The notes below the pieces were generated by a model, which saw only the letters and a list, made by a program, of their open reading frames with translations, searched no databases and was not told the DNA's origin. From NCBI RefSeq assembly GCF_000313135.1, contig NW_004457380.1, forward strand, positions 244,741 to 308,740: DNA of 64,000 nt, in the 5' to 3' direction. A program made the translations under genes and the position numbers. Source of the stretch: Acanthamoeba castellanii str. Neff (lineage: Eukaryota > Discosea > Longamoebia > Acanthamoebidae). Positions 19,648 through 36,368 of this stretch are shown here, piece after piece. Each line of letters begins with the position of its first letter. Within the stretch, counting starts at the first letter, position 1.

Positions 19648-20316
19648 TCAGTACGCGTTGCCGACGACGCTGCCCATGGTTATGGCGAAGACCTGGGACT
19701 GATTGACGGGGAGGAGGCGCGGCTCGTGCAGGTCGGCGGTGATGCTCGACTTGGCGCCGAAGTCGAAGCGGCCGTGGTAGGCCGAGCGCCAGCCGGCCAC
19801 CGACTCCAGGGCCTGCAGCCGCTCCGTGGCCGCCAGCGCCGTCGCGTTGGTACCCTCCACCGCTGGCCGCCACTCGCCCTGGCTCACCTGAGACACCATC
19901 ATAGCCCGTAAGTCGTTGTGTATCGTGTGTGTGTGTCGTGTGCGCCGTGTGCGTGTGCGTCGTGTGCGTGTGCGTGTGCGTGTGCGGTTGGACACCTTGA
20001 GGCCCTTGGCGTCGGCGTCGTCGGGGTGCAGTGGCGCGGCGGCGACTTCGAGGATCTTGTACAGGGAGCCGTCCCACTCGCCGTTGTACAGGAGTTGGTT
20101 GGTGTTGCGTTCGTGGCGCATGACGTAGTCGAGCAGGGCGGCCTGGAGGCCCGCGTCGTCCAGGTCGGGCGCCAGGCCCGCCGCTGCCGCCTGCTTGTCC
20201 ACCAGCACGCCCTCCCAGAACTGGGTCATGGCGCCTCCGGCGGCTTCGGTTCCCTGGTGCCAGAAGTAGAGAGTGGTGCGGACCCGCACAGTGATAGGGT
20301 GGTCGGTGCTGGACAT
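19648..20316 (-). CDS. Conserved-looking protein of unknown function, 186 residues
   Basis: Two exons, 20316-19996 and 19887-19648, joined across a GT-AG intron in phase 0 to give 186 residues. I do not recognise the family. The N-terminal third reads like a beta-rich domain (ITVRVRTTLYFWHQGTE). The rest is mixed helical, with one mildly hydrophobic stretch near the C-terminus (VFAITMGSVVGNAY). There is no signal peptide or membrane segment. Strong GC3 codon use in both exons supports real coding. The 3' end faces the rhomboid gene end (19547), a convergent pair only 100 bases apart. The intron contains the genome-typical GTGTCGTGTGC repeat. Confidence 0.72.
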   Translation of the reverse strand: MSSTDHPITVRVRTTLYFWHQGTEAAGGAMTQFWEGVLVDKQAAAAGLAPDLDDAGLQAALLDYVMRHERNTNQLLYNGEWDGSLYKILEVAAAPLHPDDADAKGLKVSNRTRTRTRTRRTRTRRTRHTHTIHNDLRAMMVSQVSQGEWRPAVEGTNATALAATERLQALESVAGWRSAYHGRFDFGAKSSITADLHEPRLLPVNQSQVFAITMGSVVGNAY

Positions 20317-20518
20317 GGTTGGTTTGATGGTAGATGAGGAGGATGATTAAAAAAACAGAGAGGCGTGGGATTTTGATTTTATATGTCATTTGGTAGTTGT
20401 TGAAGTTAAAAACGAGCTGGTGCTTCGCTGAAGTGCAACCGCTGGCAAGCCGCGATAACCAAACAAAACCCCATGGCGAGTTTGTGGTCAACCCTGGTTT
20501 GCGGTTGGCGCGGTTGGT

Positions 20519-21021
20519 TCAGGCCCAGTTCCAGGAGATGGGAATGTCGCCCGCGTTGAGGTTGGCCAGGCGGGAGAAGGCGGCCGGGCTCAGATCGAGA
20601 GAGCCGTAGCCGCAGCCTGGGCATTCGTCCTGCATTGATTTCACGACATGTTTGAGCGCCTGTTCAAACAGTCACTTTGGAGATAGCGCATACCACAATA
20701 GTGACCTGAACTTGACCGTTGGGTCCATTGACGATCGCCTGCTTGCCGCAGTAGGCGCCATTGCTGTACTGGGCCGAGTTCTGTTGGGTTATAAAAACAT
20801 AAAATCTATATATTAGCAATATAAAACTAAGGCAACATGGATAGAGTTTAACAAATAAATTAATGTACCAGGGCGGCGACGAGCTGGTTGTTGTTATTGT
20901 ACTGGCCGCAGGCGCCGAGGCCCACGTTGAACCAGGTGCCCCGGCCGCTGAAGGCCACGACGGTGGCGACCATGGCCAGGAGGGCCAACAACACGACGAA
21001 GGCGAGGCGGAGGCGAGACAT
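20519..21021 (-). CDS. Small secreted double-psi beta-barrel (RlpA/expansin/barwin-like) protein
   Basis: Three exons (21021-20869, 20780-20694, 20629-20519), all phase 0, encode 116 residues. A signal peptide is clear: basic start, then a hydrophobic core rich in L, V and A to about residue 24. The mature part matches the DPBB fold: GRGTWFNVGLGACG, YCGKQAIV, VTIVDECPGCGYGSLDLS and a closing IPISWNW. The VxDxCPGCxxxxLDLS motif and the four cysteines are typical of the family. Such proteins bind or loosen polysaccharides such as cellulose or peptidoglycan. In a cyst-forming amoeba a role in cyst wall remodelling or against bacterial walls is plausible but inferred. Length and layout resemble fungal and amoebal short DPBB proteins. 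Confidence 0.86.
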
Positions 21022-21623
21022 CTGGAAGCAATAGTGGTGGTAGTACGGCGGATGGATGTGTTTGTTTCCTTGCGCTGTGGCCTTTCCACCAGTTAGGCCT
21101 ACGGTTGGCGGACTAATGTCTACAGCCTATCAGGGCAGTGTTTACTTTTCATTCGAATCTTCCACCTACCGAATTTTAACTCCGGATTTCCGTGAAGGCC
21201 ACTACACGACATTTTAAGTTTGATGGTACAGCATGTTGAGTCCGTCCTCCTCGCCGTCGTCATCCTCGCTGCCCTTCCACAGCTCGCCCAAGCGTTGCTA
21301 GGGTCTTACAAGAGCTGACCGACAACAGAAGATCTAAGTTTGAATCTGTGGGCCACCATTGGTGTGAGGAAGAGATGCCAAGCGACTCCCACATGGCAAC
21401 TGTTCCATAGCGCAGGTTTCGTGGGAACTTAACGCACGATTCGTGTCCTCCCAGCCAGCGGCACAAAAGCCAACGAGACCAAGAATCTCATCACACCAGC
21501 AACGTAGCTTACCCCTGTAACACCTGCCCCAGCCACTACCCACCTCTCAGGGCTAGAGAAGGCCCCACGCACCATCAACCGCTACTACCACCACCTTCAA
21601 CCGCTACCTAGCTAAAAGATCGA
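21022..21623. other. Divergent promoter region
   Basis: About 600 bases between the - strand DPBB gene and the next + strand gene. Base composition drops towards neutral. Short open frames exist (21260-21543, - strand) but lack codon bias or motifs. I see no tRNA-like fold on either strand. Confidence 0.45.
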
Positions 21624-22167
21624 ATGGCGATGGAGGCGCCTAGAAGGAGCGGGCGGTTCAACTTGCCCTTTGTACACAAGTCCTCTTCGTTCGATGTGCC
21701 GCCCGACGCCTTCTCCTTCTTCCCTCTCCGCCCGCCGCCTCAGCAGCAGTTCTGGGAAGAAGACGACCAGGAGGACCTGCTGCTGGCTGCCCGAGTTGAC
21801 GGAGCCGGAGGAGGTCAAACTGTTCAAGAGCAGCCAAGAGGTGGTGATGGAGGAGCGAGGGGAGAAGGAGCGCAGCCGATCGTTCGATGTCCAGGACCTC
21901 TCGAGCTCGCCCAGGCCCAGGCTCCCAGCGGGAGCGCAGCCACCCAAGAGGCTGTCTCTCGCCTACGGCCCCGGCGAACTGAGCAAGGCGCTGCAGGCGC
22001 TGATGAGCCTCCACGAGCAAAGCGACAGTGAGGTCAAGTCGGACAGCAGCGAGGACGAGGAGTGCAGCCTGAAGAAGAAGGAGAAGAGGCGGGACCGGTC
22101 TCGACACAGGCGAAGCTTCCTGTCCCTGCTTCTACGTAGGACAGCAAGTGACAAGCGCACCCGCTAG
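21624..22167 (+). pseudogene. Small hypothetical protein gene with an apparent frameshift
   Basis: Two coding-biased segments lie in different frames with no room for an intron. From ATG 21624 frame one reads RRSGRFNLPFVHKSSSF and an acidic EEDDQEDLLL segment. From about 21790 the coding bias moves by one base to a frame containing LTEPEEVKLFKSSQEVV, a GELSKALQALMSLHE helix and a basic KKKEKRRDRSRHRRS tail ending at 22165-22167. The product would be about 180 residues, charged and mostly disordered; the family is unknown. The frame change is either a real mutation or a one- or two-base assembly error. An assembly gap 540 bases downstream makes an error likely. Confidence 0.5.
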
Positions 22168-22271
22168 GAATTGTAATGTGTTGTAAAAATGTAAACTTCC
22201 CAAACGAACTTTCATTAGCGACCAACGCTCATTTGACGCAAAATTGCAACAAAAAAAGAGTATATCTTAAG

Positions 22272-23176
22272 ATGGAACGGGAGGGGGCGGCCAGCGCTCT
22301 TCTCGAGCTGCCGCAGGAGCTGTTATGCCACATTTTCTCCTTTGTCGTCGCAGTTCAACCCGCCGCATCAGCACCGACCAGGGACGCTGCAGCGCGAATG
22401 GTGATGCGCGACCTCGGGGCCTGGTCCCTCACCTGCACAGCCTTCCGCACGCTCTGCAGCGCCGAGACCAAGTGTCGCCACTTGTGCCTGGCCGCCAGCC
22501 CGGTCCTGTTCGGCCTCGGCCTCTCGCCCCTCTACGCTGCGCCTTCACCGCCACAGCTCGTTCACGGTTTTAACTCCGATGCCGACTCACCCACGAGTTT
22601 TAACTCCGATCACTGCTGGTGGCAGTTGCGCGCTCGGCTGCTGGTGGCCCGGCCCCACCGGCTCACGGGCCAGCGCGAGGTCCATCCGACCGTAGGCCGC
22701 GACGGTGGNNNNNNNNNNNNNNNNNNNNNACAATCGGCGCCTGGCCACGCAGCCGTTCGTCGGCTCGAGCCGCGAGACGCTGGCCGAGGCCTTTGCAGAG
22801 GTGGCGCGCGCCACCATGGACCAGCCCCTCGTTTCGATCGAAGAAGAAGAAAAGCGTTTCATGGCGGCGGTCCTCTTCCGCGGACGAGGAGCCCAACACG
22901 ACCGATGTCTTCGTGTGCCGTTTCCCGCTGGACCGGAAGGAGACCTATCCCGCAGTCGGTACTGCCCCCCCCCAGACATGATTCATTTTTGTGTTTTTGG
23001 CCCGCCTGACTTCACAAACAGGCGCAGGTTGTGTGGCCAGGATCAACTTTGGCGACGAGCCCTTTGTGTTCGATGTCAAGACCTTCGTTGAGCGGAAGCG
23101 CGCCGGCCTGTTGGCCACCCTTCCACACCTGCGGCTCACCGGGAGCTGGGAGGCCGCAGCCCCCAAGCATTGTTGA
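22272..23176 (+). CDS. F-box protein with SPRY-like C-terminal part, interrupted by an assembly gap
   Basis: From ATG 22272 an F-box is clear: ALLELPQELLCHIFSFV, then WSLTCTAFRTLCSAETKCR. F-box proteins link substrates to SCF ubiquitin ligases through Skp1. Coding continues to the 21-base N run at 22709-22729. After it one frame reads TQPFVGSSRETLAEAFAEV, then at about 22860-22890 the coding bias shifts frame to EEPNTTDVFVCRFPLDRKE. A GT-AG intron (about 22959-23021) leads to GAGCVARINFGDEPFVFD, which resembles the core of a SPRY/B30.2 domain, and the frame stops at 23176. The gap and the shift mean the middle is unreliable. A 14-base direct repeat (GTTTTAACTCCGAT, 22566 and 22597) lies just before the gap and may have caused the misassembly. 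Confidence 0.7.
22709..22729. other. Assembly gap (21 N)
   Basis: Unresolved bases inside the F-box gene. The true gap length is unknown, so the reading frame across it cannot be judged. Confidence 0.99.
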
Positions 23177-23294
23177 TGGCCGCAACACCACGCACTCACA
23201 CGTTTTCTTCATTCAAGAAAAAAATGCATTCATTCGCCATCACACCTCCCAACTAAGTGCCATCAACGAGTGGCTGGGCGTTGTCGCCCCTTCC

Positions 23295-26156
23295 TCAGTG
23301 GTGGAAGGCCTGCAGGCGTTGAAGGAACTCCTGCTTGCGCGCAATCTTATTGTGCTCCGCCGCCGTGAGTTGCACGCCCTGTGTGTCGTGTTGTGTGCGT
23401 GCGTGTCGTTGTCGTCGTCGTGTGTCGTGTCATGTGAGCAACAGAAAGGAGGGGGAAAAGGGTGGTCGGGTAGGCCGTACGTCGCGCAGCATCGTCTCCA
23501 GCTTGTCGATCTGCGCCAAGCGGCGATGGACTGCCGCCTCCGCTGACTCCTCCGCCGACCTACGCCACAGTTGAAGTCAGACACGCGCACCACCGCACAC
23601 ACTGCATTCACACCGCACACGCGCACGACAAAGAGCGGTGCGTACGGGGTGAGGGCGGCGATCTGCTGTTGGAGCGCGAGCTTGAGCTCCTCGGAGGCGT
23701 TTGACGCCTCGAGCGAGCGGAACCGCTTCTTGAGTTTCCGCAGGCGGTTGAGCGTGGCCTTGTCGTCCAGCTTCGGCTTCTTGGCCTCGCCCTGTCCCTC
23801 CACTTGCACCGCCTTGTCCGCGTCTACAACAAATAATGGCAACCCAAAGAACGAATACGCGACGGGGGGGGGACGTCAGAAAGAACGAAGAAGAACGAAG
23901 TGCAAAATGCGAGGGGGGGGGGGGACGGACCTTGTTGCTTGCGCTTGTCTTGGGCGTCGCCAGCGGTGGTCGCCTTGGGAAGGCGGTAGTCGCTCTTGAT
24001 GTCCCTCAGCTCGCGCAGTCGCTTCTGCTCGTCCTCGGGCAGCGCCGACGGGTCCAGCTTCGCCGCGCGCGCCTTGTTGCGGGCCACCAGCGCCTTCAGC
24101 TGCGCCGCCAGGCTCGCATTCGGATGCCTCTGTTGAGCGTAGTTGAGATCGTGAACACACACACACACACACACAGCACACAACACACAACACACACACA
24201 CACACACACAACACACACACACACACACACAACACACACACAACGAACCTGGGAGGCGTTGGCGAGGGTGAGCTTGGAGAGGGTCGTGTTGGTGGTGGTG
24301 AGGACGTCGGTAAAGGCCTGGTAAACGGGCGCCGTGGGCATGCGGTTGCGGTCGAGCACGAGGTGCGTCAGCGAGGTGTTGGTGCGCAGGGCCTCGGCTA
24401 CAGCCAGGTAGCCGGCCTCGCCGATCCCGTTCTGGGTAAGATTGAGCACACGCAGCGACGTGTTCTGCGCTCACGACCAATCGAACGTATGCGGTGCGTG
24501 CGTGCGTGCGGTCAGTGACGGAGCAATCGCGAGTGTGACAGCGGCTGGCGCGAACCTCGGCCACGGCGGCGGCGATCGCCTGGGCGCCAGCGTCCTCGAT
24601 AACGTTGGGCTTGCCCTCCAGCGCCTTCGTGGCTTTGGCATAGCCCAGATCCTGCGACACGCAACACACACACACAAACACATGTGAGTGCGTCGACGCA
24701 CACAACACACACACACACACACGTGAGTGTGCTGCATGCCCTTGGTAGTGGGTAGGTGGGCCGTACGAGGCAAGTGAGGGTATTGTTGAGGCGGAGCGCG
24801 TCGGCGAATGTGGCCGCAGCGCGCGGCCCGAGCTCGTTGGACAACACGGCCAGCGTCAGCAGGGTCTTGTTCTCCTTGAGGGCCTCGGCGATGAGCAGCC
24901 CGCCCTCTTCGCCCAGGTTGTTGAGGCCCAGGTAGAGGTGCTTGATGGTGGTGTTGCGGCGGATGATGCCCGCAATGTGCCGCGCGCCGTCCACGCCAAA
25001 CTCATCTGGCGGACGCGTATGAGCGAGCGCACGACACGACACACAACACACGACACACGCACACGACGATACACGACACACAACGACATATGACGACGCG
25101 TACTGCCCGAGAGGTAGAGGCTGATGATGGAAAGCGGGTGCGCGGCGTCGACGAACGCCTCCTCGAGCAGTCGCGCGCCCTCCACGCCCAGGTTGTTCTG
25201 CACCAGATCGAGCGTCTTCACCCTGCATCGATGATTGACCGATTTAACCATCCATGATCGACCAATCGGTGATGTAGTGGTTAATTATTAGCCAATCGCC
25301 CGCGGGTCAGGGTGTGACGCGTACGATTGGTTGGTGCGGAGGGCGGAGAGGATGGCCTGGAGGCCCGTCAGGCCGATCTGGTTGCGCTTGAGCCAGTAGC
25401 CCTCCACCACGTCGTTGTTCTCGATCGCCTCCGCGATGTACTTGGCGCCCTCCTCACCGATTCCGTTGCATCCCTAGGTGCGTGTCGTGTGTCGTGTGTG
25501 TCGTGTGTCGTGTGTGTCGTGTGTGTCGTGTTTCGTGTGCGGTGTATTGTGTGGGCGATGTCTGGGTCAGCGCTGGAGCTGGGGGGCTGATGGGCGGGAC
25601 CTGGCGCACATACGAGGAACACGGTCTTGAGGCTCCTGTTCTTGAGCAGCGCTTGGCCAACTGCACCAGGTCGGGGTCGGTCAGTCGCGCATGTGCGGTG
25701 GTGCGGTAGTGTGGTGGTGCAGTGGTGCGGTGGTGCGGTGAGACGATGATGGTGGCGACGAAATGTAAGCGGGCGGGCGAGGCGGTACCGGCGCGGGCTC
25801 CCTCGGGTCCGATTTCGTCGGCGCCCAGTAGTACGCTGCGCGCGGTGGTGCTGTTCTCCAGCGCCTCCATGATCTCCCTCGCACCTGCACGCACGGCCGT
25901 GTGCGTCAGCTTCACCTTTCCACATTAACTGAAATATATTAAAACAGCAAGAATAAAATAATAATGAATAATCAATAACACGGGCGTACCCTCGGGGCCG
26001 AGCATCTGTTTGCACAGGTCGACCTTGACGACGTTTGATTGATTGGCCCGCAGCCGCTGCACGTACCAGTCAAGTTCCGTGCCGGGTCCCACGCCCTTGA
26101 GCGTGCCGCTGGGGTTCGTCCAGACGTCCTCGATCTTCGCCTCCGTGTCCATCATT
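23295..26156 (-). CDS. Leucine-rich repeat (RI-type) protein with helical C-terminal region
   Basis: About ten exons. The start at 26156-26154 gives MMDTEAKIEDVW. Then come repeats of the ribonuclease-inhibitor/NLRC type: GARLLEEAFVDA, GARHIAGIIRRNTTIKHLYLGLNNLGEEGGLLIAEAL, GPRAAATFADALRLNNTLTCL and GEAGYLAVAEALRTNTSLTHLVLDRN, each with the N-x-[IL]-G-x-x-G-A pattern. At least eight repeats should form a curved protein-binding solenoid. From about 24110 down, the sequence becomes charged and helical (LAAQLKALVARNKARAAKLD, LNRLRKLKKRFRSLEA, EHNKIARKQEFLQRLQAFHH) and stops at 23295. No enzyme domain is seen; a scaffold role is inferred. The introns carry CA and ACACG repeats. The start lies about 136 bases from the + strand MRH fragment, head to head. 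Confidence 0.85.
24158..24244 (+). repeat. CA-rich microsatellite in LRR-gene intron
   Basis: A dense (AC)n run with CACAACAC variants, between two LRR-gene exons. A shorter similar run lies at 24662-24722 in the neighbouring intron. Confidence 0.85.
25484..25550 (+). repeat. (GTGTCGT)n-type repeat in LRR-gene intron
   Basis: Interspersed GTGTCGTGTG units directly after the exon that ends near 25475. It belongs to the same ACACG/CGTGT family seen in many introns of this window. Confidence 0.8.
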
Positions 26157-26291
26157 TTCTGCACCTTTTTTGCTGGTATCCACGAAATATGGTGGTTCGT
26201 ACCGCTAAATTTTGTTTCGTATTTGTTAGCGCCATGAATTTTTTATTTTAAAATTTCATTTTCAATTTTTATTTATTTTTATATTTGGCAG

Positions 26292-26601
26292 CGACCCGAG
26301 CAAGGACCCTGGCGTGTTCTCCTTCGCCAGCGAAAACCCCGTCAAGACCTACAACCTCCAGTACGTGTCCAAGTACGCCTGCCCGATCGGCGTACCCACG
26401 CCCAGCCCGAGCCTGAGCCCGAACCCGGCGCCGCCGTGCAAGGGCAACGCGTGCTGCCTCTACCAGTTTGACTCCGACCCGACCATGACCCGGACCCTGT
26501 GCGCCACCAAGTGTCCGCCATTCTTTGGCGGCTTTGCGCTGGTCTTCAACTGGACCGTGTCGCCGTGCACCAGCGACACCTGCTTCTTCCACAAGAAGTA
26601 A
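26292..26601 (+). pseudogene. 5'-truncated duplicate of the last MRH-gene exon
   Basis: This stretch matches the last exon of the MRH gene at 30706-31024 almost codon for codon: DPSKDPG, NPVKTYNLQYVSKYACPIG, a PSPSLSP linker, CCLYQFDSDPTMTRTL, VSPCTSDTCFFHKK and stop. Like that copy it is preceded by an AT-rich intron end (TTGGCAG). The upstream exon is absent: only short matches (TGGTTCGTAC, TTTCG) remain before 26292, and the LRR gene starts at 26156 in the other direction. It is therefore a partial duplicate, probably not expressed as a functional protein. The two copies flank the CpG-poor island. Confidence 0.78.
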
Positions 26602-26824
26602 GATGTGTGTTACATGCATGCCCATTAACGTGTGGGCCACAAACACATGGTCCACCTTGTTGGATATTCGTCCTCTCTTTCTACACTCCGGGTTGGGAGG
26701 CCTCGCCACGGTAGCCCCAGGCCAGGTGCGAGAGAAAATATTTTTCTTTGTACGTTCCTGTTGTGCGCACCACTCCCCCCTTGGGTTTAGCCACCAGCTA
26801 GATCTTCTGTGTGCTGGTGCTACG
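26602..26824. other. 3' flank of the truncated MRH copy
   Basis: Non-coding host-like sequence with normal CpG content, ending where CpG disappears at about 26823. No gene is seen. Confidence 0.5.
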
Positions 26825-27495
26825 TAGTGGGCAGGATTACTGGGGTAGCCAGTGTTCTTTATTTTATTTGCATGGTGGTGATTGTCATTGAGCACATGCC
26901 TGGAGGAGGAAGCTTTTTTTGATGAATTGGGAAGTGAACAAAGGAGTTTATTTTAAAAGTTGGAAAGATTGGAAAGACAGAGTTTAGTATTCACTCCTAT
27001 CCACATCAGAACCAGAGTGGAAAGGGGAAAGTGACCCAAGGTCAGGCAATTGGTCAATGTCAGAGTTGTGGCTTCTGTCCCTGCTCTGGCTCCTGCTCTG
27101 GCTCCTGCTCTTGTGGTGCTTGTGTTGTGATCCATGGCTGTGCTTGTGGCAGTCATTGTGGGCACTGCTGCATCTGTGGGTGTGGGTGTCAGTATCCTCA
27201 TGATCTCAGTGCTTTCTCTTAACACTGTGTCTGGAAAAAGGTGCCAGTGGCACCTTTTGTTAAGTAAAATCTGTACAAGTGATATATGTGTATGTGCAGC
27301 AAAAGCAGTACTTTTGTGAACATGGTGTGTGAGTGGTTTTGGCAAAATATGTACAGAGAGTGGCAAAACAGGGAAAAAATGGTGTTGGTCATGGTAAAAG
27401 CAGATGGGGCCAAGGAAGAATTTCAAGGCATAAGTCCACAAAAAGGGCTAATGTATTTTGTTGGAATGAGGAACAGAACAGAGTGGAGGGAAACA

Positions 27496-30285
27496 TTAGC
27501 CAATGGACTTCCACACTTTCCATGGACTGGAAGAGGAGGAGGAGCTGGTCTTGGGTGTGAGAGGGGCAAGGGCAGGATGTGAAGATAGGCCTTGTAGGAA
27601 GGAAGTGATGGCTGTGAGATCTGACTCCTCCAGGAATTTAGAGTGGAAGGTGAGGAGCCAGTTGCTGAGAGAGGAGATGTTGCCCTCTGCTATGGGGGTA
27701 GAGGAGAGGCAGACAAAGCTGGAGTAAAGGGCAGCACAGAAGGAGAGGAAGTAGGTGGGATTTGCCTCATAGAGAATGTGGTAGGGGGTGGTGGGCGATG
27801 TGATGGGGTGGGGAGAAGGATTGGGAAGCTCTAAGCTCTGGATGAGGAAGCTGTAGAGGCTGATGTGAAGCAGGGTGCAGTCCAATGATTGAGCTGTGAG
27901 GAAAGCAGGAGCAGAGTGGACAACCTCATGTGTTGGGTGTGGGATGGGGATGTGGTGCAGATAGCAGAAGGGTTTGGGGATGGTGTTGCTGGCCAGAGGA
28001 TGCCAGATGGTGGACATGTTAACCCTCTTGTGGCTGAAGATGAGAACATTGAAGCCACTGATGAGAGGTTCAGAGGTGGGCATGGAGCTGGAGTAAGTTG
28101 GGGAGCTGTAGTAGAAGTGGAGTAGGTGGAAGACCTGGAGGGTGGAGTGTGACTTGAGTGAGGTGATGGTGTTGGTGATGTTGGAGGGAGATGAGGAGAT
28201 GTAGAATCTGAGACTGTAAGACTTTGATAGGCAAGTTGCTGTGTTGTTGATGTTGAGAGGAATGTCTGCACTGTGGATGGTAAAGTTGTGCATGTAGATT
28301 GACACCTGTGGAAGAAAAAAAACGGTGGACATCAGGAATAAGTGAAAAACTGATGTGCATTGGGGAAAAGAGTTGACAAATAAAAACCTGATGTGCATTG
28401 GGAAAAGTGTCAACAAATAAAAAACTGATGTGCATCAGGAAAACAATGTGGGCTGATAAATGCACCGGCCATTCATGGAATTGCATTGGTTGGCCAAGAA
28501 GCTTGGTGAGCAGCTTGGTGAATTGGGGGAGATACTTTTTCTGGAGAGCAAGCTCTGCCTTGTGCTTGATGGTAGATGGTGACTTTTCCTCTTCAGCCTT
28601 ACCCTTGCCACATTTCTTGGTAGCTGTAAAGAACAAGCATGTGGTGAGCTTGGAACTTTACCAGCAAAATGAAAACGTACTGGTTGGGGTGGTTGGAGTG
28701 GTGCCAGAAGCTTCAGCAGCAGTGGGCTGAAGTCAGAAAATAGTGGTGTAAGTGAAAGTAATGGGGTGTGAATTGGAACAGGAAGGAGTTGATTGTACCA
28801 TTTTCCCCTTGGCCAACACAGAAAGATGCTGGCGCTGTTCACTTGTGGACATTGAGGCAAGGGAGGCCTCCTCTGCTTGAGAAGCTGCAGTGGCACATGC
28901 AATCTCCCCTCATAACTGGCAAGGTGTGGTCTCCTCTGCCTCATCACTGAGAAGTTTTGACTGGAACAGGTGCTTGCAGAACGTGTCAACAACTTCAGAG
29001 GTGATGCTGTGGGGCTGCTTGATCTCAATGTTTTTACCACACAGCACGATGTATTCCACAACACAGATCCAGTCCCAGATGAAGCTCCTCAGGATCTTCA
29101 CAGCAGCAGTCAGCCTCCATGGCTGCATGAACAGCCTGATGAAAGGCCTCCATCTGCCTTTTGATCTTGCTCCAGTGGTTGGTGATTAGTGACCAGAAGT
29201 TCTCTGGCAAGAGGGAAGTAGTTAGACTTGTGGGGAGAAGAACAAAAGAACTAAGAAGAAAGGACATACTCTTGGAAGGGGCTTGGTGTTGATAGTGCTT
29301 ATAATGATGAAGCATGGTGATCATGTCATTGGCACTCAATTCCCTGAAGGCACCAGAGTTGAGGTTGTCAAGGGAGATGAACACCTGACCCTCTGGAACG
29401 AGGCAATTGAGTTCCTTGATAAGACTGGAAAAGGGGAACAGTTAGCAAGGACTCAAAACAAAGGGGAAGAGTTAGAGTAGAAATAACATACTCCACCACT
29501 CCTGGAGCATGGAACAGGGCCCTTAAGGTAGTTGAGTACTTCTGCAGAGTGGTGGGCTTTGGTGCAGCATGACCCTTGAGCGTTTTCTGTTAGGTGTGGG
29601 GTGATGAGTAATGGTTTGAAATATGAGGGTGGTGGACATACCAGGTGCTCAGCAAGAGCATTGTAGTCAGTAACAGTTTTTTTGCCACATGTGATCTGGA
29701 AGAGTGGGTTTTGGCTGAGGGTGTAGTAGTTCAGGGCCTTTTTGAAAGCATTCAGGATGACTGAGCCCACCAAGTTGATGTAGTTCTCAAAGCTGGAGAT
29801 GCAGTCAAGGATGATCCAGCTGAGTTCCATCCCTGCAGCTGCTGGCACAACTTCATAGACATTCTCCCACTGCCAGTGCTCAACAAGGTTCCAGACCACA
29901 ACTCTGTGGTTACAATCAACAGCCTCTGGAAGGTTAAAAGTTAGTACCCAAAAAAACCAATGCACATTGGGAATTGTGAATAGCCTAAAAACTGAATGAC
30001 CATGAGTGCAGCTAAATCAAAGTGGTGTGGGAAGTAATACCAAACTCATCAACATTGTTTCAGTCAAGGCGCTCATCTTCATTGAGAAATCTAACAATGA
30101 AGGGCTTGGTTGTGAGACACTTATCACAGATGTGTTGGTGCAGAGTAAAATCTGACTCTACCTTGTTTTGTGTTGGTGCTACTTGGAACAACCTCAAAAT
30201 GCACCTTGCTTTTGCTTTCACCCCCTCCATCAATTCCATAATCAGTGGCCAACATGCTGCCCTCACTTCCAGTTCATGTAAAACC
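27496..30285 (-). pseudogene. Unrecognised spliced gene inside the CpG-poor island
   Basis: At least nine segments join through GT-AG introns. Examples: HRVVVWNLVEHWQWENVYEV (about 29930-29650); KTLKGHAAPKPTTLQKYSTT, ending at a GTATGT donor (about 29493); SLDNLNSGAFRELSANDM (about 29430-29275); NFWSLITNHWSKIKRQMEAF (about 29200); KCGKGKAEEEKSPSTIKHKA (about 28620-28466); and a long last exon from about 28303, starting VSIYMHNFTIHSADIPLN and stopping at 27496. Donors are GTATGT, GTACGT and GTGCAT. Two in-frame TGA codons (28910-28912 and 30060-30062) interrupt otherwise good frames, and one frame change occurs near 29125. I recognise no family: there is no reverse transcriptase, integrase or capsid motif. 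The 5' end stops at the MRH gene. It may be a transposon gene, a viral remnant or a silenced gene copy. Confidence 0.6.
28346..28441 (+). repeat. 38-39 bp tandem repeat inside the island
   Basis: Two full copies and one partial copy of a unit containing AACTGATGTGCATTGGGAAAA followed by a CAACAAATAAA-like end. It lies in the last intron of the island gene. Confidence 0.8.
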
Positions 30286-31024
30286 TCTGGCCAGAGCGAC
30301 TGCCAGGGCAAGGTGGGCGGCTACGCCTATGACCTCACCCCGCTCGCCCAGAAGCTTGGCGCTGTGGACCTCCAGACGCAGGATACACGCAGCCAGACCT
30401 ACTACTACCGCGTGTGCGGCGTGGTGAGCAACAACTTCTGCCAGACCGTGGACGACATGACGCCCGCCGTGTGCCAGAAGGACTCGCGCATCCCTGCGGA
30501 GTTCCACGACCTTGGGAACCAGAAGACGGCCACCTTCAGTTCGTTGCCGAACCGCCCCGACAACGCCGGCTTCACTGTCTCCTACTCCGGCGGCCAAGAC
30601 GGCCGCGCTTCCAAGATCTATTTCGTGTGGTTCGTACAAAGCGCATCATTTCGGTACCACTTAATTAATCTTCATTTTTGCACTTTTCTTTTTTATATAT
30701 TGCAGCGACCCGAGCAAGGACCCTGGCGATTTCTCCTTCCTCCAGGAAGACCCCATCAAGACCTACGACCTCCAGTACGTGTCCAAGTACGCCTGCCCGA
30801 TCGGCGCACCCACGCCCAGCCCGAGCCTGAGCCCGAGCCCGAACCCGGTGCCGCCGTGCATGGGCAACGCGTGCTGCCTCTACCAGTTCGGCTCCGACCC
30901 GACCATTACCCGGACCCTGTGTGCCCCCCAGTGTCAGCCGTCCTTTGGCGGCTTCACACTGATCTTCAACTGGACCATGTCGCCGTGCACCAGCGACACC
31001 TGCTTCTTCCACAAGAAGAAGTAA
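30274..31024 (+). CDS. MRH (mannose-6-phosphate receptor homology) domain protein, 5' incomplete
   Basis: Two exons, about 30274-30629 and 30706-31024. An upstream acceptor (CACTTCCAG) could start the first. The joined frame reads SGQSDCQGKVGGYAYDLTPL, YYYRVCGVVSNNFCQ, a VSYSGGQ segment, YFVCDPSKDPG and a Cys-rich end CTSDTCFFHKKK-stop. The YDLTPL opening, the paired cysteines and the glycine-rich core are typical of MRH/ATG27-like lectin folds in the secretory and endolysosomal pathway. Such a protein needs a signal peptide, but none lies upstream: the sequence changes abruptly to the CpG-poor island at about 30285. The first exon is therefore lost, displaced or beyond the island. A Pro/Ser linker (PTPSPSLSPSPNPVPP) divides the second exon. 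Confidence 0.7.
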
Positions 31025-31208
31025 GATGCGTGCTCCGCGGCCACACTACAAATACATCAATGTCCTCCGGCACTCTCGTGTTGATGAGGTGTTTACATGG
31101 TGTCACTGTTGCAGCCGGTAATGGCCCGGAGATCGGTTTGGCCCAGTCCACGTAACGGCTTATTTTTGAAGTGATCGCTTGCCACGCGCTGGTGCAACAA
31201 GCAACGTG

Positions 31209-33585
31209 TTACGGCTGCTGCGGGCGCAAAGCGTCAAGCTGACGCCAAACCTGGGGCGCCATCATTCTGCCGTAGCGCTCGACCCGGCACTCGGCCTCCT
31301 GTTCGTTGTCGCCGCCTTCTCTATCATCTTTCGCCTCCTCGTGTTCTTTCTTCGAAGCTTCTTCTTTTTGGTCGTCTTGTTGGAGCTGGCGCTTGCGCTG
31401 GTGGTGCTTCCATCGCCTCTCCCACGAGGCCACCCGCTCGATCTCTCTCAGGGCGTCGTCGCGGCGCATCGTCCGTCGGTGGTACTCCACCGCCTCGGCC
31501 CAGTACGCCTCGTTGGCCGCTGCCTGCTGGCCCTCGAGCTCCTCGCCTCCGCCACCAGTAGCTGAGACGGGCTGGGCGCCACCTGTGTCGACTGCTGCGG
31601 CCGCTGCTTGGTCTGCTTGGTCGATGCCGAGGAGCTCGCCGAGCTCGGCCAGGCTCATGTCGCACTCGCGGCCCTTCTTGGTCCGGTGGAAGTGCGACAT
31701 GTTCTCCTCCCACAGCGCGTCCACGCTGTCGGCCTCGGCCGCCTGGTTCTGCTTCGTCACCACCACCGCAGCCGCTGCTGTCGGCGTCGCTGCGTCGTGG
31801 TCCTCCACCTCCATAGCGTCGGTGTGTGACTTCTCAATACTGCCTCCGCTGCTGCTCGAAGATTCAGTTGGCGCTGACGTGACCTGTGGCCTGTCCTTTG
31901 GCTATTGTATTGTGTAATGGTAAGGACAATGTTACTATCAAGTAGGTGTCGGGTCGTTGGTCGTGTCGTTGGTCGTGTCGTGTGGTCATGTCTCGGGTGT
32001 ACCTTTTGATAGACGTGTTCGTAGATCTTGCTCTCCACAGTACTCTGAATGAAGAATCTATACACGAAGGTCTGCTTGGACTGCCCGATCCTGTGCACTC
32101 GACCCACCGCTTGCGCCTCTGCTCCCAGGCTGTACATTCAATAACAGATTTTATTATTTATTATAATTTTATCCCTGAGTTAGCTATGATTATTCATCAC
32201 TTTCATTGCTGTGATGTACGGGCGGTGCGTACTTGAGCGATGGCTCGACGATGAACACATGAGTTGCTTCGATCAAATTGAGTCCGTTGCACCCAGTCCT
32301 AGTGGCAGCAGAAAGAAGCGTGAGCGGTTCGATTTCCTTGAATGAGACCGAAAAGAAAAATAAAGAGAGGGCACCGAATGGGCAGAAGAAGGACGGGCAC
32401 GTCGGAGCGCGACTTGAAGTTGTCCAGATCCCGTTGCAGTATCTTCTTGTTGGCCGTACGCAGACGAATATTATTCACCCCGTTCTCGCTCAACGCCCTA
32501 CGTCATCACAACCCAATCAGCCATCGTCATCACCACCTCCATCGTCATCATCGTCATCATCGTCATCATCAACATCATCATCGAGTGGTGGTACCTCGAC
32601 ACGAGCAACAGCACGTCGTCCCACTGGCTGAAGACGAGGCACTTGATCCTGCTATTATTGTCGACACGCGTGATGTTTTGCAGGAGGAGCTCGTCGTCCA
32701 TGGCGCCGGCATCGGCGTCAGCCTTCTCCTTGCCCTTCTCTCGCTCGCGCTCCTGCGCCTGCGCGCTCTGTTGCACGTGAAGGATGCAGCGCACGACGCC
32801 CTCGATCTTCGTGCCCCAGCTGCCCTTCACCTCGACCCGCCGCTCCTGGGCCGTCTCCTCGGCCTCTTGCAGCGCTCTGGCCCGCGCCTCCTCCGCAGCG
32901 TCATCGTCGTGGCCGTCGCCGATGACGTGTGATGACGTCAGCACTGTGGGCGGGGCCGTAGTAGTTGTGGCGGATGAGGAGAAGAAGGTGAGCTCGGTCG
33001 TGTTCATTCGCGAGCGGCACGTGGGGCACTTGATCGTTCCATGGAGCGCCCTGAGAGGCCGAATCGCGTGAGTCTTTGCGTGCGTGTGCGGTGTGTGCCG
33101 TGTGTGCTATGTGTGACGCGCGTGTCGTGTGGTTACCTGTCGACCATGGTCATGATGCACGGGCAGCAGAACTCGTGGCCGCACAGGAGGATAGCGACAT
33201 CGCTGTCGTTCTTGAGGGTCTCCTGGCAGATGACGCACTCCTTGACCTCTTCCTCAACTCCGTCGCCTTCGGAGGCATCGGCCTCCAGCTTCTCCTTGCC
33301 CTTCGTCGTGTCGACAGCTGAGCCGTCGATCGGCGGCTGCTGGTGCTCCCCTTCTTCCCGGTCGACCTTGGCCTTGTTCTGCGCGAGGGTCTTGAGGTAG
33401 CGCAGCTGGCCCCGCGCTCGCTGCAGCTCCGACTCGGACTCCTTCTTCATCACCTCCAGCCTCCGCTTGACCTCCTCCACCTGAACGGGCCACAGCTTGA
33501 CCACCTCCTCTTCGGGCGGCACGATCTCACCTGCAACGTTTCCGAAACGTTTAGGAAACACAGAATTGTAAAGTGTGTTTTTTAA

Positions 33586-33617
<32 letters not shown>

Positions 33618-36368
33618 GGCCACGAACCAGGGACGCGGAGCCGAATCCTGACGGTCGCCATCTCCAGCTCGTCAAGAGCCGACAATCGCTCCTTTTGCTT
33701 CGTCCACACCTAGAGCCCAAGAAAAAGCAAATTAGAAAAACAACACGAAACGAAACGAAAGAAAACGAAAGCTGGCATGTTGAAGGAAGGTGGGCACCTC
33801 GTGGCTGAGCTTGAGCTCGTGCTTCATCATCTGCAGGCGTTTGATGTGATCCGCGCCCTCTTCAAGCAACTGCTTCCGCTCCTCATCGCTCTTGGAAGAG
33901 CCGCTGCTGCTGCGCAGGTGGCGCACGATGTGTGCCAGCACCTGCTCGGCCTCCGAACTCTCGCGGAAGCTGCCGAACCCGACCGTCTCGCTCGCTTCGC
34001 CGTCCTCCCCCTGCGCCGGCGTCTTGCCCTTCTTGTTCTTGCTGTGGGCCTTCTTCGCGCCATCGCCGTCATCGCCGTCACCATCTTCGCCGGGCGCCTT
34101 CTGGCGGTAGCGGTAGAGGGATCCGTCGTAGTTCATCAGCAGCACGTGGGCCTTGCAGTGGTCGCACACCTGGCCCGTCTTGTTGAAGTAGCTCCGGCAC
34201 TGCCGGCAGTTGCCGCTGAGCTCGACGTCGGCCGCGGTCGGCGTGCGGTCGCCCAGGTGCAGCAGGGCGTTGACCGCCGCGGCGCGCTTCTTCGCGAGCT
34301 CCTTGAGCTCGTTGAAGAGGAGGTGCTTGAGGGTGGCGACGGTCTGGAACCGGTGCGCGAGGGTCAGGGCGCGCCCGCCCCTCCCGCGCATCTTGCCCTG
34401 CGTGCGCTCCTCCTGGGCCAGCAGCTCGTTGCGCAGCTTGGTGACGAAGTCGCAGTTGTGGTTGTCGTCGGCGCTGTCGATGAGGTTGAGGGCCTCGACC
34501 CACCAGGCGTTGAGCCGCACCTCCCGCTCCACTGTGTCCTCGCCCGTGATGATCTCCGGCTTGACCCTGGACTCGCCGTTGTGGGTGATCGTGGCATCCT
34601 CGGCCTCCTTGATCTTCCGCGTGGCCTCCTTCCACTTGTCCTGCGCCACCAGCTGCTCGAGTTCTGCACAAAAGAGAAAATGAATAAACCAATCAATAAA
34701 ATTATAAATAAATAACCCACGAAGTGGAAGCAGTGAGGATGCGGGGTATGGACCAGCTCTCTTGGCGTAGAGCTCGCGCAGCTTCGCGGCCTCTTCCACC
34801 AGGCGATGGTCGTTGAGGGTGTGCCCTTCAGTCTTCTCCAGTTCTGCCCGCTCGTCGTCCGCCATGCCCTGGAAAACCTCGGCCAGGTTTGCCAACGCAT
34901 GCAGCCTCTGCAAAGCATCAACGCTGATAATTTCGGCTACACACACACACACACACAGTCAGTGAACGCGCGAAAGAGGAGTGGTTGAACACGCGTTGAA
35001 CCTTCGTTGACGCTGGCGGGCAGCTGTTTGCGCCCTTCCTCGTCGATGGGTCGGAACTCCATGCCCAGGACCTGGCGGTAGTTGCGGATCGCCTGCAGCT
35101 TGTCGCCGTTCACCAGCGCCACGCCGGCCAGACCGTTGAGCGACGCGACCAGGTTTCGCTGCCCATCCGCGCATTCGATGGTGGCCCTGTTCAAGAATGC
35201 AAGAAATGTTCACAAATCAAACGAGATAATATTTGAATATTTGATGATTACCTGATAATCAGCTGCAGGAGCAGCTCGCTCATAGACATGGTGTTCTTCT
35301 GGAGGGAGGTGAGGCCCGATTTGCTGCCCACCTAATGCTGAACATTAGTCGAATTCCTCAATTGATTAGATACGAGGAATCGCTCGCGTACCTGCGGATG
35401 GCAGCACGCCTGCCGGAGGGAGAGGAGTGACCCGAAGATCTTGGACACGTTCTTCTCAAAGTTGATCGCACGGTTGTGCTTTAAGCGTTCGAATATGGTG
35501 CGGGTGCGTTGCACGGTGTCGCCCAGCCTCTTCTTGTAAAAGTGCGCCTGCATGTCGCATTACTCCGCAATGAGTGTGTGCGTGTGTGTGTGCGTGTGTC
35601 GTGTCGTACCTCGACTGGAGAAAAGGTGAGGAATCGAGTTTTCTCGTGCAGGGGAGGAATGTCGATTTCGTCGACGACATCGACCTTGCTCGTGCGCCAC
35701 ATGATGGTGCGCAGGAACCCGTGCAGCTTGTCCCGCATCTCCCCGCGCTCGTAGGGCAGCTGCACGCACTGCCGCCACACGCTCCGGGCGTCGAACGGCG
35801 CGAGCTGCAGGAAGGCGATCAGGCCGTGCAGGTCCTCCAGCCCGCGCCGCTGTATGGGCGTCCCGCTGACGCCCCACCTGTTCACCGTCGACAGCCGCAG
35901 CGCCATCTTGGCGACCTTGGTCGACGGCGTCTCGATCATCTGCACCTCGTCTAAGCAGGTGCGCCAGAACCGCACGCCTGTAGCCCACCCAGGGCCATGT
36001 TGAGAGCTATTCAGAAGAATGCGAGGAATGTCTGGAGGCCCACCACGTCCGTACCCAGCAGAGGAGTAGGGATTGGTCGGTATCGCTTCTTGTCCCTGAA
36101 GTTTCTTGAGGGGCTCTGGCTGATGACGTGGCTCAAGTCATTCCTGAAAGAATGCAAGAAGAAAAAAGAAATGTTAGTTTATTGTGCAAAGCGCTTCAAC
36201 GAACAAACAGGACTGGTGAGTACCGTAGGGTGGTGTAGGTGGTCAACACGACGTCGTAGTCGACCAACTGGGCAGGTCGCACGATCGGCAGCCCGCCAGC
36301 GTGCTTGGAGACCGTTCCGCGCACGCCCTCGTAGACCAGGTACTGTGTGTGTACAAGAGAGTCTCAGT

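What the first reader, a model, noticed from the sequence alone, without database searches (positions are those of the whole stretch)
26825..30285. A sharply bounded 3.4 kb CpG-free island in a CpG-rich genome
The host sequence on both sides has a CpG every 10-20 bases; this segment has 11 in about 3460 bases, an observed/expected ratio near 0.06, with excess TG and CA. The borders are abrupt. Such loss is the classic mark of long-term cytosine methylation and deamination. It suggests a foreign insertion (transposon or virus-derived) that the amoeba silenced by CpG methylation, in a lineage where such silencing is not widely documented. Alternative: transfer from a donor with CpG avoidance.
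Basis: partly seen in the sequence, partly recalled or inferred. Interest (0 to 1): 0.88.

Follow-up and report, generated by a model that had tools for sequence, protein, structure and literature searches.

The report
RIP-like CpG mutation of amoeba transposons
This CpG-free block in an amoeba genome is a broken piece of two nested transposons, and most sister copies have each lost about nine in ten of their CpG sites separately, with nearby losses tending to fall on the same DNA strand, which would be a sign outside fungi that the cell likely mutates its own transposons.

Summary
In detail: 10 CpG in 3,461 bases, o/e 0.057 against 1.03-1.04 around it. The genome is almost certainly Acanthamoeba castellanii Neff. 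The block is the left 2.9 kb of a DUF7869-type DNA transposon lodged in fragments of a second one, cutting into a host gene. One sister copy keeps 107 CpGs in the same segment. At 106 of those sites the 21 other copies hold both TG and CA, and copies agree in 1,934 of 3,918 comparisons, as by chance: each lost its CpGs separately, at 46-235 times the C>T rate elsewhere in the same DNA. Nearby losses tend to share a strand (0.66 under 15 bp, 0.50 beyond 1 kb; 0 of 400 site-permuted sets), and a second family repeats this. RIP in Neurospora does this; independent deamination would not. Transposon methylation in this species is published; I found no report of strand-coordinated CpG mutation in it. 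Enzyme, timing and methylation of these copies are untested. The block's own borders show almost no flanking decay, so it likely arrived already decayed.

The parts
26833..27220 (+). Fragment of the outer transposon (positions 240-627 of the 6.25-kb copy in L043); the outermost 239 bases are missing
27217..27220 (+). TCTT, the expected left 4-bp target duplication of the inner transposon; its partner is absent because the right end is missing
   Evidence: sequence; 4-bp rule
27221..30120 (+). Left 2.9 kb of the inner transposon (up to about 7.4 kb in copies with both ends), truncated on the right
   Evidence: (full-segment copies at 91-94% identity)
27221..27254 (+). Left terminal inverted repeat of the inner transposon, beginning AACACTGTG and holding a GGTGCCAGTGGCACC hairpin
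27496..30120 (-). Decayed exons of the inner transposon's left gene; no Pfam family above cut-off; the one exon searched (29453-29965) has 11 relatives, three of them named uncharacterized ACA1_ proteins of A. castellanii Neff
30121..30287 (+). Second fragment of the outer transposon (positions about 5750-5916 in L043), truncated on both sides; joined to the inner transposon without shared bases
30286..31024 (+). Host gene without its start codon and leader: the join falls in the codons just after them, judged by reading the paralogue on C54 (L064)
26276..26598 (+). Partial tandem copy of the last exon of that host gene, 89-91% identical, CpG-rich: a small internal control

Best explanation
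The CpG-free block is a rearranged fragment of two nested DNA transposons of an amoeba (Acanthamoeba castellanii, by inference), most of whose copies have each lost about nine in ten of their CpGs separately, through what is likely a RIP-like process that changes C to T at CpG sites on one strand at a time over stretches of a few hundred bases. Shown here: the nested structure, the transposon ends and target duplications; CpG as the ancestral state; separate loss in each copy; a CpG rate 46-235 times that of other C>T changes; same-strand clustering in two families; and the flanking preference (YCGR lost, RCGY kept). Inferred: that an enzyme, probably of the cytosine-methyltransferase type acting on repeats or heterochromatin, makes the changes in bursts rather than hydrolysis acting site by site; that the sites were methylated (not measured on these copies); and that the window's copy decayed elsewhere and reached this gene afterwards as an end-joined piece, which would explain its missing outer ends, the deletion join inside it and its near lack of a halo.
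For: Separate loss: at 107 CpGs of copy L005 the 21 other copies read TG 521, CA 562, CG 145, other 14; 106 of 107 sites show both products; pairwise agreement 1,934 of 3,918 over 83 pairs. GpC control: 5 of 171 sites with both products. Rate: 46-235 times in the 17 copies with at least 20 sites; window copy 97 of 106 lost, 138 times; likely a lower bound, since non-CpG differences include older ones, though three copies rest on 1-3 non-CpG events. Strand clustering: 0.66, 0.64, 0.59, 0.57, 0.57, 0.53, 0.51, 0.50 with growing distance; 0 of 400 site-permuted sets reach the values below 500 bp and 0 of 400 within-copy-permuted sets those below 250 bp; 0 of 200 below 250 bp when site and copy totals are both kept; all 14 copies with 30 or more lost sites have negative runs scores, window -3.57. 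Repeated in the outer family (0.70 falling to 0.50) and, up to 120 bp, in the rest of the inner element. A tract simulation, compared by eye, brackets the data with stretches of 300-600 bp and 0.3-0.6 of CpGs hit per event; independent hits give 0.50. Context: kept YCGR 9 of 430, RCGY 63 of 283, 0 of 10,000 permutations; the same skew in 142 CpG-poor blocks, which include these families. Host control: 23 of 34 CpG sites kept in a host duplication at 7.8% divergence.
Against: No enzyme is identified: RID, the RIP methyltransferase, appears confined to fungi (PMC12344493 section 5). That paper found no enrichment of methylation on DNA transposons as a class, only on some inserts (section 6). Clustering is partial (0.66, against 91.9% single-strand clusters in Neurospora, PMC7296669 passages). 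The intermediate copy L009 alone shows none beyond 15 bp, while L003 does. In the outer family 3 of 10 scored copies have positive runs scores. The context skew is weaker there (YCGR 4 of 189, RCGY 18 of 304). The mutated strand does not follow the 5' base (199 of 442, my sum from the table), which fits a methylation preference under passive decay as well. In the host duplication 9 of 11 changed CpG sites are also TG/CA, so host CpGs have some excess too.
Confidence: 0.6

Rival explanations
1. Passive decay: copies are CpG-methylated for silencing and 5-methylcytosine deaminates spontaneously, site by site, over long times, with poor repair of T:G mismatches.
For: CpG methylation of A. castellanii transposons with DNMT1/DNMT3 present is published (PMC12344493 section 6); graded retention from 107 to 29, 22 and 0-12 CpGs; a halo into flanks; a context effect without strand bias. 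Only one UDG and one HhH-GPD match were found in the genome, though the exon-by-exon search makes that weak.
Against: Predicts no strand agreement between neighbouring sites: the independent simulation gives 0.50 with a maximum of 0.556 under 15 bp, observed 0.674 on the same 97 sites. The ratio of 46-235 is far above the roughly tenfold excess that I recall for methylated CpG in mammals (recalled, no call).
Confidence: 0.22
2. Single-stranded exposure or patch repair: resection, gaps or mismatch-repair patches expose or copy one strand over a few hundred bases, so methylated cytosines deaminate or are fixed together without a dedicated defence; long cyst dormancy could add to it.
For: By reasoning, it gives local same-strand tracts with CpG specificity, because U would be repaired and T would not; no dedicated enzyme is needed.
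Against: Dormancy followed by replication alone would give agreement over the whole copy with no fall with distance, but agreement falls to 0.50 beyond 1 kb. Recalled deamination rates are too slow to place several hits within 100 bp in one dormancy (recalled). Non-CpG C>T changes within 250 bp show no clustering (7 of 21 pairs against 11.1 expected; few events).
Confidence: 0.13
3. Foreign donor with CpG avoidance, or a virus insertion, so the block arrived in the genome CpG-free.
For: Abrupt borders; giant-virus insertions exist in this species (PMC12210455 abstract).
Against: The same element has a copy with 107 CpGs at o/e 0.63 in the same genome and separate losses in the others; ends, target duplications and DUF7869 mark a transposon.
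Confidence: 0.01
4. The block's place in the host gene is an assembly join, not biology, in a draft assembly.
For: Repeats lie at each join; a 21-base N run elsewhere in the window; almost no halo at its borders.
Against: The inner-outer join shares no bases and the right host join at most about two, which overlap assembly does not usually make; the left host side has no relative to compare. The CpG findings rest on the family, and the strand result holds without the window copy.
Confidence: 0.1

Closest known systems
Repeat-induced point mutation (RIP), Neurospora crassa
   Same: C>T change in repeats, dense, clustered within about 1 kb on one strand (PMC7296669 passages)
   Different: CpG here, while most fungi with RIP favour CpA (PMC2621366 abstract start); amoeba, not fungus; no RID known (PMC12344493); graded loss with partial clustering; sexual timing unknown
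CpG-biased RIP-like mutation in basidiomycetes
   Same: CpG>TpG change (PMC4014442 passages); the TCG bias in Pucciniomycotina cited there resembles the YCGR loss here
   Different: In R. solani genes and repeats are affected alike (same passages); here the host DNA of the window keeps its CpGs; strand clustering was not in the passages I saw
Dim2-dependent mitotic RIP-like mutation, Zymoseptoria tritici
   Same: Methyltransferase-linked C>T mutation in transposons (PMC8016269 passages)
   Different: Acts at CpA, not CpG
CpG depletion of transposons by 5mC deamination, rust fungus Austropuccinia psidii
   Same: CpG-poor old transposons, younger ones richer (PMC12774611 passages)
   Different: Read there as deamination of methylated cytosine, with RIP argued against
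DUF7869 (PF25273) proteins
   Same: Pieces of both the inner and the outer transposon match it

Membership tests
RIP | C>T transitions in repeated DNA, sparing ordinary host DNA | tested here: met
   the gene control is one 333-base host duplication
RIP | Mutations clustered on one strand | tested here: met
   weaker than in Neurospora, and absent beyond 15 bp in L009
RIP | RID/Masc1-type methyltransferase needed | not tested
   PF00145 search gave 6 matches at 4 places, not classified; RID published as apparently confined to fungi
RIP | Premeiotic timing, triggered by pairing of homologous DNA | not testable with these tools
   needs crosses or mutation-accumulation lines
RIP | Leak into single-copy flanks | tested here: inconclusive
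   halo at 9 of 22 transposon flanks, chosen for CpG-rich far DNA; of 3 checked, one has no second match over its nearest 307 bp, one begins in a repeat, one is patchy
Passive methylated-CpG decay | Losses independent between neighbouring sites | tested here: not met
Passive methylated-CpG decay | Sites methylated | not testable with these tools
   published for this species' LINE and LTR elements and for some DNA-transposon inserts, not for these copies
DUF7869 DNA transposon | Terminal inverted repeats and target duplication of constant length | tested here: met
   inner: 9 of 10 end pairs share 4 bp, the tenth (C94) lies the wrong way round to be one element; three further right ends had no left end compared; outer: 28-bp perfect repeats and TGGG in L043, the only copy with both ends read
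DUF7869 DNA transposon | DUF7869 protein encoded | tested here: met
   in the window's own copy that part is missing
Giant-virus insertion | Viral genes | tested here: not met
   No viral family in the open-frame pieces tested, Pfam only; multi-copy element with transposon ends

The most novel reading that the evidence does not exclude
Acanthamoeba runs a RIP-like genome defence without RID: an enzyme, perhaps a DNMT1/DNMT3-family methyltransferase, sweeps a few hundred bases of one strand of a new transposon copy and turns a third or more of its CpGs, YCGR first, into TpG, round after round until about 90% are gone. It would be the first programmed mutation of mobile DNA known outside fungi.
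Probability: 0.45. Interest if true: 0.94.

Novelty: new variant of a known kind. Interest (0 to 1): 0.8.

Why it matters
[quoted passage not shown] Here is a genome where that can be tested directly: an amoeba kept in axenic culture with a published methylome (PMC12344493), transposon copies that run from CpG-rich to CpG-free, and a clear mutational signature. If true, RIP-like defence is older or more easily evolved than thought; if false, passive decay must explain same-strand tracts and a CpG rate some hundredfold above other C>T change.

Tried and rejected
Virus or foreign donor: rejected by the CpG-rich sister copy. A CpG-free master element spreading as such: rejected by random TG/CA agreement between copies. 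Helitron or LINE with 5' truncation: considered because the copies share the left end; dropped once right ends with inverted repeats and target duplications were read. A single-strand cytosine deaminase with a 5'-base preference: the mutated strand does not follow the 5' base (199 of 442, summed). Gene conversion as the source of strand tracts: reasoned away, not tested, since copying from unclustered sources gives no clustering. Rfam on 20000-36000: nothing. Pfam on the left gene: nothing above cut-off. UDG and HhH-GPD searches: inconclusive. Rows dropped: L001 is the window itself; L019, L020 and L025 overlap L009, L011 and L014; alignment pieces under 200 bases or under 85% identity were left out; copies with under 10 lost sites were left out of the strand test and those under 30 out of the runs test; most of the shorter of the 86 matches were never fetched.

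Full report
THE OBSERVATION. Window 26825-30285 has 10 CpGs, o/e 0.057, TG+CA o/e 1.53 and GpC 0.99; the flanks have CpG o/e 1.032 and 1.041. The genome (G000, 38.4 Mb, 250 contigs) is almost certainly Acanthamoeba castellanii Neff: 3 of 11 relatives of one left-gene exon are named ACA1_ proteins of that strain, and one of these lies on a contig of 165,220 bases, the exact length of C248. The block is one of many: each of the 16 loci L037-L052, fetched because they match these repeats, mixes CpG-poor blocks with normal DNA.

WHAT IT IS. The block matches three separate repeat segments: 26833-27220, 27221-30120 and 30121-30287. The middle one is the left 2.9 kb of a DNA transposon with inverted ends AACACTGTG..., up to about 7.4 kb in copies with both ends. 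Nine of ten end pairs share a 4-bp target duplication; the tenth, on C94, is not one element. The right gene, missing from the window's copy, encodes a DUF7869 protein. The other two segments belong to a 6.25-kb transposon of the same kind, with 28-bp perfect inverted ends and TGGG duplications in L043, also matching DUF7869. In the window the inner element's left end sits in the outer one at 27220/27221; the inner right end and most of the outer element are gone. The inner-outer join at 30120/30121 shares no bases, the right host join shares at most about two, and the left host side has no relative to compare. The right join falls in a host gene just after its start codon and leader, judged by the paralogue on C54. 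So this is a relic, not a clean insertion.

HOW THE CPGS WENT. I aligned 22 copies of the 2.9-kb segment. One, L005, has 107 CpGs (o/e 0.63); L003 has 29, L009 22, and the rest 0-12. At the 107 sites the 21 other copies read TG 521, CA 562, CG 145 and other 14; 106 of 107 sites carry both products in different copies, and two copies agree on TG or CA in 1,934 of 3,918 comparisons. Retention is 0-12.5% in 17 of the 21 and 16-26% in L003, L009, L013 and L015. GpC sites carry both transition products at 5 of 171. The ancestor was therefore CpG-rich, and each copy lost most of its CpGs on its own. The outer family shows the same: agreement 1,059 of 2,132 at its mixed sites. Outside CpGs the 14 copies with more than 1,200 aligned bases, window included, differ from L005 by 0.6-3.5%. 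Per cytosine, CpG loss is 46-235 times the C>T rate elsewhere in the same DNA, 138 times for the window's copy (17 copies; three of them rest on 1-3 non-CpG events). In a host duplication beside the block, 23 of 34 CpG sites are kept at 7.8% divergence, though 9 of the 11 changed ones are TG/CA.

STRAND TRACTS. If each loss were a separate accident, neighbouring sites in one copy would agree on strand half the time. They agree in 0.66 of pairs under 15 bp, 0.64, 0.59, 0.57, 0.57 (120-250 bp), 0.53, 0.51 and 0.50 beyond 1 kb; 0 of 400 site-permuted sets reach the values below 500 bp, and 0 of 400 within-copy-permuted sets those below 250 bp. Keeping both site and copy totals, 0 of 200 reach them below 250 bp but 39 of 200 do at 250-500, and dropping the window, L002 or L010 changes little. 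Leaving out the 37-bp repeat stretch changes little. All 14 copies with 30 or more lost sites have negative runs scores. The outer family, at other loci, repeats it (0.70 under 15 bp, 0.585 at 120-250, 0 of 400), with 7 of 10 copies negative; the rest of the inner element, largely in the same loci, repeats it up to 120 bp, with 10 of 11 negative. In L005, where 27 inferred sites are lost, 11 consecutive losses from 28242 to 28967 are all on one strand, though some L005 losses may be older (agreement with others 188 of 304). Non-CpG C>T changes show no such clustering, but only 21 pairs could be scored. Against: L009 alone shows none beyond 15 bp.

CONTEXT AND HALO. Kept CpGs are 9 of 430 in YCGR, 73 of 515 in mixed and 63 of 283 in RCGY contexts (0 of 10,000 permutations); in 142 CpG-poor 500-base blocks of the window and L037-L053, which include these families, the remaining CpGs are 6.2% YCGR and 46.7% RCGY, against 21.6% and 26.2% in 240 normal blocks. 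The outer family leans the same way more weakly. The mutated strand does not follow the 5' pyrimidine (199 of 442, my sum from the table), so the preference acts on the whole palindromic site, as methylation would. Nine of 22 transposon flanks lie in CpG-rich DNA; their CpG o/e is 0.04 in the first 50 bp and nears 1 only past 800 bp, while the window's borders have 0.44 then 0.80-0.84 at once. Of three such flanks checked, one has no second match over its nearest 307 bp, one begins in another repeat and one is patchy, so the halo is suggestive only. The block's sharp edges thus point to late arrival of decayed DNA.

READING. A tract simulation run at 0.1, 0.3 and 0.6 hits per CpG brackets the data, by eye, with stretches of 300-600 bp at 0.3-0.6. 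That resembles RIP, where 91.9% of clusters are single-stranded (PMC7296669 passages), shifted to CpG. Passive decay of methylated CpG explains the CpG specificity, the halo and the context, but not the strand tracts or, by recalled comparison with mammals, the speed. The enzyme, the timing and the trigger are unknown; methylation of these copies was not measured here.

LITERATURE. A. castellanii transposon methylation and its DNMT1/DNMT3 are published (PMC12344493 sections 5 and 6; PMC12210455 abstract and passages). Section 6 finds LINE and LTR elements, younger ones above all, preferentially methylated, and DNA transposons as a class not enriched, with some inserts highly methylated; that counts against methylation of this family, or reflects how few CpGs such copies keep. 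[quoted passage not shown] the CpG loss here looks like an exception. I saw no report of CpG-poor transposons or RIP-like mutation in Acanthamoeba in searches; most subscription papers are not in that library.

Noticed in passing
window 26276-26598 and 30690-31018: Tandem partial copies of a host exon on either side of the block; the right gene has lost its start codon and leader.
   Followed up: partly
P0002 and P0017: Proteins named Candidatus Protochlamydia amoebophila on contigs of 1.6 and 1.0 kb match these amoeba transposons at 81% and 90%: probably host DNA in an endosymbiont draft genome.
   Followed up: no
G000 C215:64255-65683, C248:16663-16821, C94:880810-880986, C155:85035-86104: Six PF00145 methyltransferase matches at four places; which are DNMT1, DNMT3 or orphan was not worked out.
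   Followed up: partly
G000 C59, C236, C94:303250-304234, C142:64956-66325, C48: Diverged (71-78%) relatives of the DUF7869 transposon: a larger family in this genome.
   Followed up: no
window 28325-28446 and copies: A 37-38 bp tandem repeat inside the transposon; matching repeats recur in varying numbers further along other copies.
   Followed up: no
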